The position numbers and the translations under genes are program-made. A DNA stretch of 64,000 nucleotides from Ferruginibacter sp. (GTDB taxonomy: Bacteria > Bacteroidota > Bacteroidia > Chitinophagales > Chitinophagaceae): assembly GCA_014379905.1 (NCBI GenBank), contig JACMKX010000142.1, forward strand, positions 1-64,000. The letters run 5' to 3'. This document shows, one piece after another, positions 10,350-14,373 of this stretch (position 1 is its first letter; each line of letters begins with the position of its first letter). The notes under the pieces were generated by a model that did not search any database, was not told the DNA's origin, and saw only the letters and a list, made by a program, of their open reading frames with translations.

Positions 10350-11510
10350 ATGAAAAGATTTTTACCTTTTATTTTATTAATAACTCTCCTGTTTACTGCC
10401 TGCAAAAGCAGCAAAAATTACCTGGAACGCACAGACGAAGACCGGGCTTTACAGGATGCTGTAAAACGCCTCGGTAAAAATGCAGGCGATGAGGATGCGG
10501 TAACTGCTGTTCCTATTTTATATAAGAGTATCTCTGCCAACCGCCTGGCCCGCATCAAAAGTTACCAGTCCGGCGTTGATCTTGGCCGCTGGGATAAGAT
10601 CATTTCCGAATACTACCAGTTGCAATCTGCTTATACCAGTATCATTAATACTACCGGCGCATTTAAACTGGTAACACCCGAAAATTACAGTACTCAATTA
10701 CTGGAAGCAAAACAGCATGCATCAGAAAATTACTATGATTATGCCCAAAGCTTTTTACAAAAAACCGGCAGGGACAATGCAAAGAGAGCTTACAGCAATT
10801 TTAAAAAAGCCAATGGTTACCTGGATGGAGGTTATAAAGACGCGCAGGCTAAAATGAATGAAGCTTACGAAAATGCGATAGTTGATGTAATGATCAACCC
10901 TGTACAAGACAATAGTTTTTTTAACAACAATGGCTGGGGAAATAGCTGGAACAGTTACAGCAACGATTATTTTCAGCGTGCCCTCGTAAGAGACCTCGAT
11001 AACAACAGCAGCAATAACAGGAATTATGCAGCAAGGTTTTACAGCGATTGGGAAGTACGAAATAAAAATATAGCCGTGGATTGGGAAGTGAACCTCTTTT
11101 TAAGGAACATGGATATTCCACAACCAACCAGGTATAATTCCAGGCAGAACAGGAGTAAAAAAATTGAAACAGGAAAAGATACTTCGGGCAGGCCGGTTTA
11201 TCAAACAGTAACAGCAACTGTAAATATAACCCGCTATAGTTTTACCGCCTATGCTGCAATGGATGTACAGGTAAAAGATCTTGTTACACCGAAAAATATC
11301 AGCAGCCGAAATTTCAGGGAAGATTATCGCTGGCAGGAAGAAAGGGGAACGTACAGCGGCGATAGCCGTGCATTAACCAACAGCGACTGGGAGGCAGTTA
11401 ATAACAACAGGGGTTACCAGGAACCACGCAGGGAACAGGTAGTAGAGGAATTGTATAAAAAATTATATAGCCAGATATTGAATCATATAAGGTATACGGT
11501 GGAGTGGTAA
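10350..11510 (+). CDS. Putative lipoprotein of unknown function
   Basis: A 386-residue exported protein. The signal MKRFLPFILLITLLFTAC ends in an LFTAC lipobox, so Cys18 should be lipidated. The mature part starts with a helical region (about 28-170) with TPR-like spacing of Tyr and Ala (YYDYAQSFLQK, AKRAYSNFKKANGYL), followed by an Asn/Gly/Ser-rich linker near 188-225 and a beta-rich C-terminal half. I recognise no named family. A strong terminator follows, so it appears to be a single-gene unit. Confidence 0.75.
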   Translation: MKRFLPFILLITLLFTACKSSKNYLERTDEDRALQDAVKRLGKNAGDEDAVTAVPILYKSISANRLARIKSYQSGVDLGRWDKIISEYYQLQSAYTSIINTTGAFKLVTPENYSTQLLEAKQHASENYYDYAQSFLQKTGRDNAKRAYSNFKKANGYLDGGYKDAQAKMNEAYENAIVDVMINPVQDNSFFNNNGWGNSWNSYSNDYFQRALVRDLDNNSSNNRNYAARFYSDWEVRNKNIAVDWEVNLFLRNMDIPQPTRYNSRQNRSKKIETGKDTSGRPVYQTVTATVNITRYSFTAYAAMDVQVKDLVTPKNISSRNFREDYRWQEERGTYSGDSRALTNSDWEAVNNNRGYQEPRREQVVEELYKKLYSQILNHIRYTVEW

Positions 11511-11534: not shown

Positions 11535-11560
11535 AAACCGGTAATTGCTTACCGGTTTTT
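11535..11560 (+). terminator. Rho-independent terminator
   Basis: AAACCGGTAA (11535-11544) and TTACCGGTTT (11549-11558) form a perfect 10-bp stem with a TTGC loop, running into a T-run. It follows the lipoprotein stop by about 25 bp. Confidence 0.8.
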
Positions 11561-11561
11561 T

Positions 11562-11590
11562 ACTTGAGGTCATCATTTGTGACCTCAAGA
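11562..11590. repeat. Inverted repeat upstream of the ORF6N gene, related to its internal palindrome
   Basis: CTTGAGGTCA (11563-11572) and TGACCTCAAG (11580-11589) pair perfectly over 10 bp around a 7-nt loop. The 29-bp block matches 21 of 29 positions of the core of the palindrome inside the ORF6N gene (11885-11913). Two differences are paired changes on both arms, so the symmetry is kept. It ends about 75 bp before the ORF6N start, a fitting place for an operator. No T-run follows. Confidence 0.6.
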
Positions 11591-11664
11591 TTTACGCTAC
11601 GGGGAAAATCCCCTGTTAGTTTAAAACTTTGTTTTTAATTTGAGCCCGTCATTATACGCTTGAT

Positions 11665-12228
11665 ATGAAAACAATTAAGAGCATTCAAAACAGGATCTAT
11701 GAGATAAGGGGAGAGCGGGTAATATTGGACCAGGACCTGGCTATTCTTTACGAAACTGAAAATAAAAGGCTAAAAGAAGCTGTCAGAAGAAATATTAAAC
11801 GATTTCCGGCTGATTTTATGTTTCAGCTTACAAAGGATGAATATGAAAATATTATCCAATATATCGAAGAATTAGAACCCCATGACTTGAGGACGCAAAT
11901 TGCGTCCTCAAGTCATGGGGGAACAAGGTATCTTCCCTATGCATTTACGGAACAAGGTGTTGCCATGCTCAGCGGCGTGCTCAGTAGCGAAAAGGCCATA
12001 TCTATGAATATTGCTATAATGAGGGCTTTTGTAGATATAAGGAAACTCTTTTTAGCAGAAAATAATTTAAAAGATCAATTAAAAGAGATTAAGGAAAGAT
12101 TGGGAGAACATGATGTTCAACTCAACCAGATCTATGACGCAATGGAAAATCTTTTGGATGAAAAAATTGTTCAAAGAAAATGGGAAGACAGGGAACAGAT
12201 AGGTTTTAAAAATAACCACGTTAACTAA
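11665..12228 (+). CDS. ORF6N-domain DNA-binding protein
   Basis: A 187-residue protein of the ORF6N family (Pfam PF10543), first known from phage antirepressor-like proteins and common in Bacteroidota. The domain spans about 8-95: IYEIRGERVILDQDLAILYETE, then NIKRFPADFMFQLT and the hallmark RYLPYAFTEQGVAMLSGVL. The tail (about 125-170) is a coiled coil suited to dimerisation. Target genes are unknown. Codons 72-86 coincide with a perfect 43-bp palindrome, and a related inverted repeat lies upstream, suggesting autoregulation. The stop overlaps the end of the convergent feoB by 8 bp. Phage or mobile-element ancestry is possible, but no other phage gene is near. Confidence 0.9.
   Translation: MKTIKSIQNRIYEIRGERVILDQDLAILYETENKRLKEAVRRNIKRFPADFMFQLTKDEYENIIQYIEELEPHDLRTQIASSSHGGTRYLPYAFTEQGVAMLSGVLSSEKAISMNIAIMRAFVDIRKLFLAENNLKDQLKEIKERLGEHDVQLNQIYDAMENLLDEKIVQRKWEDREQIGFKNNHVN
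11878..11920. repeat. Perfect 43-bp palindrome inside the ORF6N coding region
   Basis: Bases 11878-11898 and 11900-11920 are exact reverse complements (21-bp arms, one central base at 11899). The arms begin CCCCATGACTTGAGG and end CCTCAAGTCATGGGG. In frame it encodes P72 to G85, with DLRTQIASSS in the middle, just before the family's RYLPYAFTEQG motif. A chance perfect match of this length is very unlikely. It would form a very stable hairpin in the mRNA or a cruciform in DNA. Confidence 0.9.
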
Positions 12229-14335
12229 AAATCCTGTACACAATCCAGCTCATTCCATAAGCCAGGGCCGTCATGTATAATAATTGAATAACCGGCCATT
12301 TCCAGCTGCGGGTTTCTCTTTTTACAATAGCCAGCGTACTCATGCATTGCATGGCAATAACATAAAATACCAGAAGCGACAAGCCAGTTGCAAGATCGTA
12401 CACCCTGCTGCCATCGGACCTGGTGGCGGCATGCATTTTTTGACGTAGTGTAGTTTCATTTTCATCTTCGCCAACACTGTATAATGTTGCCATAGTTCCC
12501 ACAAATACTTCTCTTGCCGCAAAGGAAGTGATCAGTGCAATACCAATTTTCCAGTCGTAGCCCAATGGTGCAATGGCCGGTTCTATCGATTTACCTAAAA
12601 TACCTGCATAAGAATTTTCCAGCAATTCCGTATTTTTCAGCTTTTCTATTTCAAACGAATCGCTGGGTGCCTGTTGCAAAATGGCTTCGTATTTCTGTTC
12701 TACTTTCTCCATCCTGTTACCGGGCCCATAACTGCTCAGGGCCCATAACAAAATACTGATCACCATAATGATTTTACCTGCATCTAGCACAAATATTTTT
12801 GCTTTTTCTACCATGGTGCTCAATGCATTTTTCCAGCGGGGGCTGCGGTAGGTGGGTAATTCTAAAATGAAAAAACTTCTTTCGGTACTTTTAATAAACC
12901 ATTTCATTATCCAGGCCACAATAAGCGCCAGCACAGTGCCTAAAAGATAAAGCGCCATCATCACCAGTCCCTGCAAACCAAACATGCCGAGTACCAGCTT
13001 TTTTGGAATAACCAACCCTATCAATATCGTATATACCGGCAACCTTGCGCTGCAACTTAGCAGCGGTGTTATCATAATAGTAAGCAACCTTTCTTTTTTA
13101 TTTTCAATACTTCTTGCACTCATAATGGCAGGCACTGCACAGGCAAAGCCACTAATCATGGGCATTACACTCTTACCATTTAAACCAACCTTACGCATCA
13201 GCTTATCGGTTAAAAAACTGATGCGTGCCATGTAACCCGAATCTTCCAGTAAAGTAATAAGGCCAAATAAAATCATTATCTGGGGCACAAAAATTATGAT
13301 GCCGCCTAAACCGGCCAGTATCCCGTTTACAAAAAGGTCGCTGAACCAGCCTTGTGGCAATATGGATGAAGACCAGGAACCCAGCTTGGCGAATGTCCAC
13401 TCTATGGCATCCATTGGATAAGATGCCAGCCAGAAAATACTTTGAAACAATAAAAATAATACAACAATTAAAATAACATAGCCCCATAGCCTGTGCATCA
13501 AAACATTGTCGAGTTTTTCTGTAAACAATGATTTTTCCAACGGGCCTTCTTCTATTACCGTGTGCTGCATGGCCTGCCGGATGCGGGCATACCGTTGCAA
13601 AATTTCTTCCGCCTGGCTTCTTGTATGATTGAACTTATAATCAGTTTCGGCCTTTTCAATATTTTCCTGCACATCACTTGCAAGGTCAAAATTTTCGTGA
13701 TTGATCAGGTAGTGCATCGCCCCGTAATTACTTAAACCCGGTACAATTTCCTTCACACGACCAATGGCTTCAGGCGCTAAAGCGGTGATTTCAATAAAAT
13801 CTCTTGAAGTATTTTGTGCATAATTATCAATCGTAAATTCAATCGCTTTTTTAAGCTCGGTGATGCCTTTTCCTTTCCGTGGATTGATAGCCACCACAGG
13901 TACTCCTAACTCTCTTTCCAAACCAGGGATGTCAATTTTTATTCCTTTCTGTTTGGCAAGATCCATCATACTCAATGCAATAACTACCGGTATTTTAAGA
14001 TCAATGATTTGCGAACAGAACAATAAATTTCTTTTCAGGCTGCTGGCATCTGCTACTAATACAATCATCTGCGGCTTTGTATCCACATCCTGCCTGAGTA
14101 ATACTTTGTACGACACCCATTCATCAGCCCGCTTGGGATATAAACTGTAAGTACCCGGAAGATCAATAATAGTAGCTTTGCGTTTATCCGAAATAACAGC
14201 AGTACCTGTTTTTTTATCAACAGTTACTCCGGGAAAATTGCCAACTTTTTGTTTCAAACCAGTAAGCACATTAAACAGGCTCGACTTTCCACTATTGGGA
14301 TTGCCTACCAATGCTATGTTTAATTGTATACTCAC
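12221..14335 (-). CDS. feoB: Ferrous iron transport protein B
   Basis: A 704-residue inner-membrane Fe(II) importer. The N-terminal G domain has GNPNSGKSS (G1), DLPGTY (G3) and, where NxxD is expected for G4, SMMD (Ser122). After a helical linker the membrane part has the paired Gate motifs (PQIMILFGLI..., SCSARLPVYTILIG) and a C-terminal FAAREVFVGTM. I place the start at the GTG at 14335, giving MSIQLNIALVG. An upstream TTG at 14368 in the same frame lies inside the predicted -7 box and cannot be in the message. No feoA is adjacent. Confidence 0.93.
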   Translation of the reverse strand: MSIQLNIALVGNPNSGKSSLFNVLTGLKQKVGNFPGVTVDKKTGTAVISDKRKATIIDLPGTYSLYPKRADEWVSYKVLLRQDVDTKPQMIVLVADASSLKRNLLFCSQIIDLKIPVVIALSMMDLAKQKGIKIDIPGLERELGVPVVAINPRKGKGITELKKAIEFTIDNYAQNTSRDFIEITALAPEAIGRVKEIVPGLSNYGAMHYLINHENFDLASDVQENIEKAETDYKFNHTRSQAEEILQRYARIRQAMQHTVIEEGPLEKSLFTEKLDNVLMHRLWGYVILIVVLFLLFQSIFWLASYPMDAIEWTFAKLGSWSSSILPQGWFSDLFVNGILAGLGGIIIFVPQIMILFGLITLLEDSGYMARISFLTDKLMRKVGLNGKSVMPMISGFACAVPAIMSARSIENKKERLLTIMITPLLSCSARLPVYTILIGLVIPKKLVLGMFGLQGLVMMALYLLGTVLALIVAWIMKWFIKSTERSFFILELPTYRSPRWKNALSTMVEKAKIFVLDAGKIIMVISILLWALSSYGPGNRMEKVEQKYEAILQQAPSDSFEIEKLKNTELLENSYAGILGKSIEPAIAPLGYDWKIGIALITSFAAREVFVGTMATLYSVGEDENETTLRQKMHAATRSDGSRVYDLATGLSLLVFYVIAMQCMSTLAIVKRETRSWKWPVIQLLYMTALAYGMSWIVYRIFS

Positions 14336-14365
14336 TTTGTAATAATGCCGGTTTATTTCGGGGCA

Positions 14366-14373
14366 CAAAAATA
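14366..14373 (-). promoter_or_regulatory. -7 promoter box of feoB
   Basis: The minus strand reads TATTTTTG, an exact TAnnTTTG. Transcription would begin near 14359, about 24 nt before the GTG start at 14335, which fixes the start codon choice. No Fur-like dyad was recognised nearby. Confidence 0.5.

What the first reader, a model, noticed from the sequence alone, without database searches (positions are those of the whole stretch)
11562..11920. ORF6N gene carries a perfect 43-bp palindrome and a diverged copy of it upstream
Inside the coding region (11878-11920) two 21-bp arms are perfect reverse complements with one central base. A second inverted repeat at 11562-11590, about 75 bp before the start, matches 21 of 29 bases of its core (11885-11913). 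Two changed pairs (T-A to A-T and A-T to G-C) are compensated on both arms, so selection or copying kept the symmetry. Translated, the upstream block reads LRSSFVTSR, like the protein segment LRTQIASSS encoded by the internal one, although it is not in the gene's frame. So a DNA-binding protein's own coding sequence may double as its operator, with a copy moved upstream for autoregulation. Alternatives: a mobile palindrome that entered the gene, or a hairpin acting in the mRNA.
Basis: partly seen in the sequence, partly recalled or inferred. Interest (0 to 1): 0.75.

Follow-up and report, generated by a model that had tools for sequence, protein, structure and literature searches.

The report
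Gene carrying its own protein's binding site
A family of bacterial genes found in many phyla carries, inside the protein-coding sequence, a palindromic DNA site whose letters change in step with the probable DNA-reading helix of the protein the gene encodes, so each gene appears to contain the target of its own product.

Summary
The 43-bp palindrome (11878-11920) is real and not chance, and is one case of a family-wide feature. In the first sets, 155 of 164 ORF6N genes carry a palindrome of about 25-27 bp in the coding sequence. A tree infers 155 compensated pair changes; 131 lie in the range where out-of-register controls give 1-5. G-T and A-C mismatches are equally common, which argues for DNA rather than mRNA.

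The decisive result is a protein-DNA code. Residue 38, in predicted helix 33-42, goes with two palindrome bases: Q-CA 104 of 107, E-CG 53 of 53, K-TC 12 of 12, L-TT/TG 14 of 14, R-GC 17 of 24. On a tree they change together on 63 branches, bases alone on 6, residue alone on none. The window gene (R35, E38) carries the predicted CG.

Best reading: the protein binds its own coding sequence, probably for negative feedback. Binding and repression are inferred. The window's upstream copy is decayed and CA type, not this protein's; upstream copies occur in 19-22 of 146 genes. Paralogs in one genome tend to avoid sharing a palindrome.

The parts
11665..12228 (+). ORF6N gene, 187 aa
   Evidence: PF10543 E 8.6e-34; PADLOC PDC-S05 2e-53; PHROG anti-repressor family 1.4e-30
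11878..11920 (.). perfect 43-bp palindrome; conserved core 11887-11911 (12 bp each side of base 11899), proposed cognate binding site of the encoded protein
   Evidence: a palindrome in 155 of 164 homologous genes; its bases fit the gene's own residues: K34 with G at distance 7, R35/E38 with CG at distances 5 and 4
11761..11790 (+). codons 33-42, predicted helix, probably the recognition helix of a helix-turn-helix; residues 34 (11764-11766), 35 (11767-11769) and 38 (11776-11778) co-vary with palindrome bases
   Evidence: AlphaFold2 helices 22-28 and 33-42; co-variation; the helix-turn-helix reading is mine
11920..11931 (+). codons 86-89 (G-T-R-Y), possible second DNA-reading element for outer bases (distances 8-12)
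   Evidence: tables and mutual information; hold-out gain small for residue 89
11878..11922 (+). codons 72-86, loop encoded by the palindrome, low model confidence (probably disordered)
   Evidence: mean pLDDT 57 for residues 71-80 and 60 for 81-90, below 50 at 81-83
11563..11589 (.). upstream inverted repeat (10-nt arms, 7-nt centre), CA type, left half decayed; not the cognate type of this protein
   Evidence: code
11535..11558 (+). hairpin followed by a T run, probable terminator of the preceding gene; not of the palindrome family
12221..14368 (-). feoB; in 6 of 19 relatives' loci it lies beside the homologue of gene 10350-11510 with no ORF6N match between

Best explanation
ORF6N proteins of this family bind, probably as symmetric dimers, a 25-27-bp palindrome that lies inside their own gene, in codons for a loop that tolerates many residues. 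A helix (residues 33-42) reads the inner bases through residues 34, 35 and 38; residues 86-89 may read the outer bases. Because the site is in the coding sequence it travels with the gene through horizontal transfer and works under any host promoter: the protein binds its own gene, hinders transcription through it, and so limits its own amount. Paralogs in one genome tend to keep different palindromes, as expected if cross-binding is avoided. Shown here by sequence: the palindrome, its compensated evolution, the residue-base code. Inferred: physical binding, dimer form, repression.
For: Palindrome in 155 of 164 genes, beyond codon choice: mean 11.2 of 12 pairs against 7.07 with synonymous codons (104 segments). 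155 inferred compensated changes, 131 of them at distances 4-10, where sliding one arm leaves 1-5. Code: Q38-CA 104/107, E38-CG 53/53, L38-TT/TG 14/14, K38-TC 12/12, R38-GC 17/24; K34 with G at distance 7 in 128/128. On one parsimony reconstruction (210 genes, tree built without helix or loop) residue 38 and its bases change together on 63 branches, residue alone 0, bases alone 6; total 69 changes, against a mean of 134 (45 joint) with bases shuffled among genes. Mapping learned on 175 genes predicts 38 of 43 hold-out genes; commonest-type guess 22. Gene hits with one in-gene site fit their own code in 178 of 181, random pairing 35% (same data as the code, and R38 there accepts four base pairs). 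Of 9 genes without a strict in-gene site, 4 have only flank sites and these fit in all 4. The residues lie in predicted helix 33-42, about 40 codons from the palindrome. 4 of 4 later-fetched plasmid genes whose helix could be parsed fit. Paralogs differ more than equally similar genes of different genomes (126 pairs, 4.60 against 3.81 of 11, p 0.0002).
Against: No binding or expression data. Flank copies fit the gene's own code only about half the time (up 16 of 33, down 18 of 28 rows), so some palindromes near a gene are not its own target. Arms of different copies at one locus are not interchangeable (own arms pair 91%, swapped 56%), which without the code would point to folding. Not universal: 6 of 46 genes of the second set and the small-plasmid gene L227 lack it. 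Three Q38 genes carry another type, though two of them have a CA-type second site (L155, L110). No significant structural match (best Foldseek E 0.79). One of two control stretches also shows a weak paralog excess (p 0.058).
Confidence: 0.72

Rival explanations
1. Identity tag rather than feedback operator: the protein binds the palindrome in its own and in rival ORF6N genes, so elements with the same tag exclude or silence each other (incompatibility). Same binding, different purpose.
For: Paralogs in a genome differ more than expected, 0 identical in 126 pairs. Flank sites of foreign type occur in many loci. Solitary gene without a constant neighbour.
Against: Over-dispersion is equally expected from avoiding cross-regulation. 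One recent identical duplication exists (L160/L218, dropped). One of two control stretches shows a weak excess (p 0.058).
Confidence: 0.2
2. Selfish mobile palindrome that inserts in frame in ORF6N genes and their flanks, like Rickettsia palindromic elements.
For: Copies of about 33 bp sit in largely unrelated flanks (L164 units 2-3: 32 of 33 inside, 15 and 7 of 44 outside). In-frame tandem copies in some genes. Several broken copies keep the palindrome.
Against: The exact core pattern (CA and CG types) is almost confined to ORF6N loci: 36 places in 22 of 198 genomes, 31 in or near an ORF6N gene. Does not predict the residue-base code.
Confidence: 0.04
3. Quasi-palindrome correction: template switching copies one arm onto the other and keeps symmetry without selection.
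For: Such mutations are known (PMC3820800, abstract read). Would explain compensated changes and a stop codon mirrored on both arms in L081.
Against: Mismatch frequency differs strongly by position (1 of 181 at distance 10, 22 of 181 at 7 and at 8). One A-C mismatch persists in three array copies. Predicts no residue-base code.
Confidence: 0.02
4. mRNA hairpin controlling translation or stability.
For: Perfect stems would fold in RNA.
Against: G-T and A-C mismatches are about equal (31 and 34; 38 and 47 in the wider set), against 17 and 4 in 65 terminator-like hairpins of the same loci. At distance 10 no G-T pair in 181 although TTG/TTA is silent. No Rfam match reached its gathering score.
Confidence: 0.02

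Closest known systems
Autoregulatory or looping repressors with operators inside coding sequences (lacO2 in lacZ, galO-I in galE, PurR's own gene; all recalled, from no call)
   Same: Operator in coding DNA bound by a repressor (binding inferred here)
   Different: Those are single cases. Here the site is a recurrent feature of a gene family in many phyla, built into its own codons, with a readable residue-base code
ORF6N / KilA-N / Bro-N phage anti-repressor superfamily (PF10543, PHROG 4792; kinship to KilA-N and Bro-N recalled)
   Same: Protein domain
   Different: Relatives of this gene are rare in phage records: 5 of 50,697, all unannotated faecal contigs. In the listings no title points to a self-target; those papers were not read
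PADLOC PDC-S05, phage-defence candidate
   Same: Best PADLOC match, E 2e-53; some ORF6N genes lie beside restriction-modification genes
   Different: A candidate label from embedding in defence regions; the palindrome is not mentioned in the passages read
Rickettsia palindromic elements
   Same: Palindromes translated in frame inside genes (PMC10969869, passages)
   Different: Those are about 150 bp and lie in unrelated genes; here 25-27 bp, one gene family, and coupled to the protein's helix

Membership tests
ORF6N family (PF10543) | profile match above the curated cut-off | tested here: met
   116.1 bits, cut-off 27.8
Self-binding intragenic operator (autoregulator) | dyad site inside the gene for the DNA-binding protein | tested here: met
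   window; 155 of 164 genes; 40 of 46 in the second set with a looser threshold
Self-binding intragenic operator (autoregulator) | site is cognate to the encoded protein | tested here: met
   by co-variation only: 38 of 43 hold-out genes; 63 joint changes
Self-binding intragenic operator (autoregulator) | protein binds the site and represses | not testable with these tools
   needs binding and expression assays
PADLOC PDC-S05 | profile match | tested here: met
   E 2e-53 for the window protein
PADLOC PDC-S05 | anti-phage activity | not testable with these tools
   needs infection assays
Rickettsia palindromic elements | long palindromic elements in many unrelated genes | tested here: not met
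   unit 25-27 bp; core pattern in or near ORF6N at 31 of 36 places
REP/RAYT dispersed palindromes | many dispersed intergenic copies per genome | tested here: not met
   CA-type core in the window genome: one place within 2 mismatches; 22 of 198 genomes have any exact core match
Structured RNA element | covariation with G-U pairs favoured | tested here: not met
   GT 31 to AC 34; terminator control 17 to 4

The most novel reading that the evidence does not exclude
ORF6N genes are self-addressed mobile genes: each carries, written into its own codons, a private DNA address read by its own helix through a simple amino acid-base code. The address sets which ORF6N genes can live together in one genome, a single-gene incompatibility or identity system spread across bacterial phyla and possibly tied to phage defence.
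Probability: 0.3. Interest if true: 0.95.

Novelty: new variant of a known kind. Interest (0 to 1): 0.9.

Why it matters
Autoregulation and intragenic operators are known, but I recall no gene family, and found no paper in the searches made (listings, with passages or an abstract from four papers), in which the target of a DNA-binding protein is built into its own coding sequence over such evolutionary distance and co-evolves with the reading helix. It gives a ready-made residue-base code to test, a probable target for a widespread family of unknown role and phage-defence candidate, and a way for a horizontally mobile gene to carry its own control independent of host promoters. Two constraints act on the same bases: the recurrent peptide LRSQxxTS in a low-confidence loop looks like a by-product of DNA recognition.

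Tried and rejected
mRNA hairpin: rejected on the G-T/A-C balance with a terminator control; no Rfam match reached its gathering score. Dispersed repeat: rejected. Orphan palindromes: L119, L120, L121 and L132 directly follow the stop codon of a neighbouring open frame, L136 lies by a tRNA-like stretch (by eye); taken as terminator-like or chance. Dedicated partner gene: none; the largest neighbour cluster is in 6 of 157 loci, and restriction-modification-like genes (named by eye) are in 6. Sequence match between flank and in-gene copies at a locus is weak: all bases p 0.20; by part, inner p 0.27, middle 0.13, outer 0.007, beyond 0.12, not corrected for four tests. Before the code was found I read the arm-swap result as a sign of DNA folding; the code replaces that reading. 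DNA looping between the two window sites (323 bp apart) was not tested. One search used a pattern two bases too short and says nothing. PDB sequence and fold searches gave nothing significant; NCBIfam gave no match.

Rows dropped before counts, and other limits of the counts: 12 of 223 genes have a gap at residue 38 and one has F; one search used 210 of 223. One search dropped repeats with identical 120-base context, among them one recent identical duplication in one genome (L160/L218). One search counts distinct 27-mers for pairing. One search scores gene hits, some loci overlap, an element near two hits can count twice, 'down' includes copies beyond a frameshift in broken genes, and its code was drawn from the same data. 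In one search the slid controls cover distances 4-10, the real count 4-12. One search aligned 67 of 83 proteins (82 listed plus the window's). The second set took 60 stretches, chosen from genomes with more than one match. Many loci are from metagenome bins, where a contig may be assigned to the wrong organism.

Full report
What was checked. The 43-bp palindrome at 11878-11920 is exact and far beyond chance: the longest arm in 30 dinucleotide shuffles of the window was 11, against 21. The upstream inverted repeat at 11563-11589 is also real. The gene is an ORF6N gene between a gene without a Pfam match (lipoprotein-like by eye) and feoB. In 6 of 19 relatives' loci examined the homologues of those two neighbours lie together, 7 to about 990 bp apart, and no ORF6N match was found between. 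So the gene probably came in at this place; a loss in the relatives is not excluded.

A family-wide feature. By record title the set includes Bacteroidetes, Gamma- and Betaproteobacteria, Nitrospirae, Terriglobia, Omnitrophica, Spirochaetaceae, Akkermansiaceae, Solirubrobacterales and others; many are metagenome bins. Plasmid records with a taxonomy line add Fusobacteriota, Campylobacterota and Bacillota. In one search, 155 of 164 reasonably complete genes carry a palindrome in the gene. Of the other 9, three have a weaker one in place (L031, L067, L169), one an off-centre one (L181), four have one in the flank (L038, L118, L220, L221), and L078 has none. In the second set 40 of 46 have it, at a looser threshold; 4 of the 6 without belong to a distinct subfamily. 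Among 11 distant genes looked at one by one, L227 on a small Segatella plasmid lacks it. With synonymous codons drawn from each locus, the 104 segments first tested would show 7.07 of 12 pairs on average; they show 11.2 (46 at 12, 43 at 11, 10 at 10, 5 lower).

Symmetry at the DNA level. Symmetry ends 12-13 bases from the centre in both in-gene and flank copies. Own arms pair in 93% of in-gene positions, arms exchanged between elements in 59%. On a protein tree built without the palindrome-coded residues, 155 changes keep the pair by altering both sides and 59 break it. At distances 4-10 the double changes number 131; with one arm slid by one or two bases, 1-5. G-T and A-C mismatches are about equally common (31 and 34; 38 and 47 in the wider set), whereas terminator-like hairpins of the same loci show 17 and 4. 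So selection does not appear to act on an RNA stem.

The code. Protein columns were scanned against palindrome bases in 175 genes, using pairs of similar proteins. Residue 38 (r 0.83) and residue 35 (r 0.56) stood out for bases 4 and 5 from the centre; the 95th percentile of the shuffled maximum was 0.20. Residue 34 stood out for bases 6-8 (r 0.46, shuffled 0.18). The tables are nearly deterministic: Q38 with CA (104 of 107), E38 with CG (53 of 53), K38 with TC (12 of 12), L38 with TT or TG (14 of 14), R38 with GC (17 of 24); K34 with G at base 7 (128 of 128), R34 with A there in 46 of 70. On a tree built without helix and loop, residue 38 and the two bases switch together on 63 branches, the bases alone on 6, the residue alone on none. 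That makes 69 changes in all; with the bases shuffled among genes the mean is 134 changes, 45 of them joint. A mapping learned on 175 genes predicts 38 of 43 hold-out genes; always guessing the commonest type gives 22. Nine distant genes were also tried and seven could be parsed; all seven fit, but three of them (L177, L179, L180) were already among the training loci, so the independent count is 4 of 4. These residues lie in helix 33-42, directly after helix 22-28, in the AlphaFold2 model (mean pLDDT 81.7), the place of a recognition helix in a helix-turn-helix; no solved structure confirms this. Residues 86-89 also carry information on bases 8-12, but they lie next to the palindrome's codons and the hold-out gain for residue 89 is small (34 against 30 of 44), so I treat this as a lead.

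Meaning. Helix and palindrome of the same gene evolve as lock and key. The simplest account is that the protein binds its own gene. The palindrome encodes residues 72-86, a low-confidence, probably disordered loop, so the protein can accept the peptide that the site dictates. Where the in-gene site is lost (L038, L118, L220, L221), a site of the right type stands in the flank, which suggests that a locus needs one cognate site and that its exact place matters less. That fits an operator. The step from binding to negative feedback is inference.

The window's own case. K34, R35 and E38 predict G at base 7 and CG at 5 and 4, and the in-gene palindrome has exactly these. The upstream copy has CA in both halves, and its left half is decayed at the centre, so it is not the predicted target of this protein. 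Upstream copies are found in 22 of 146 genes within 250 bp at a looser and 19 at a strict threshold, against 1-4 and 0 of 137-142 in the three windows farther upstream. Downstream there is no clear excess (6 of 146, then 5 of 141 and 4 of 145). The window's own upstream copy falls below the threshold. Of copies beside genes, 16 of 33 upstream and 18 of 28 downstream rows fit the gene's own code, where random pairing gives 35%. What the foreign-type copies do is open.

Paralogs. Genes in the same genome have palindromes that differ at 4.60 of 11 half-site bases, against 3.81 for equally similar genes of different genomes (126 pairs, 47 genomes, 31 with a positive residual, Wilcoxon p 0.0002; in the newly fetched genomes alone p 0.017; no identical pair). 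One recent identical duplication had been dropped. Of two control stretches of the gene, one shows a deficit and the other a weak excess (p 0.058 for all bases, 0.10 for third positions), so part of the effect could be background. It fits either avoidance of cross-regulation or mutual exclusion.

Copies and broken genes. Some genes hold two or three palindromes in frame. In L164 and L220 copies are 25-32 of 33 identical inside, while flanks are at 7-15 of 44 but for one at 25, so a unit of about 33 bp can be copied. Several broken ORF6N copies keep the palindrome (L002 in the window's genome, L202, L207, L210, L213); others show none (second copies in L017 and L168, L206).

Limits. No binding, expression or structural data. 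Literature was searched only in an open-licence library; of four papers I saw passages or an abstract, of the rest only listings.

Noticed in passing
window 11535-11558: Hairpin AAACCGG...CCGGTTT followed by a T run just before the upstream copy: probable terminator of gene 10350-11510.
   Followed up: partly
window 11599-11611: Small palindrome GGGGAAAATCCCC between the upstream copy and the start codon; unexplained.
   Followed up: no
L002 (window genome, contig 147): Second ORF6N copy broken by frameshift and stops but with a complementary CG-type palindrome.
   Followed up: partly
L081 3166-3196: In-frame stop codon inside the palindrome with the matching change on the other arm.
   Followed up: partly
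L164 and L220: Three similar palindromes around each of two ORF6N genes that lack the in-gene site, in largely unrelated flanks: the palindrome can be copied as a unit.
   Followed up: yes
L074 242-274 and 396-430: Two copies of another 33-35-bp hairpin upstream of the ORF6N gene, unrelated to the ORF6N palindrome.
   Followed up: no
L061, L062, L063: Unrelated long hairpins near or within about 2 kb of the ORF6N genes of Alistipes.
   Followed up: no
L015, L072, L102, L105, L108, L110, L223: ORF6N genes beside restriction-modification genes (annotated in L223, named by eye in the others).
   Followed up: partly
L264, L272, L283, L286: A distinct ORF6N subfamily (KFP..., PKAFTEKGLYM) without the palindrome; whether it has another self-target is open.
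   Followed up: no
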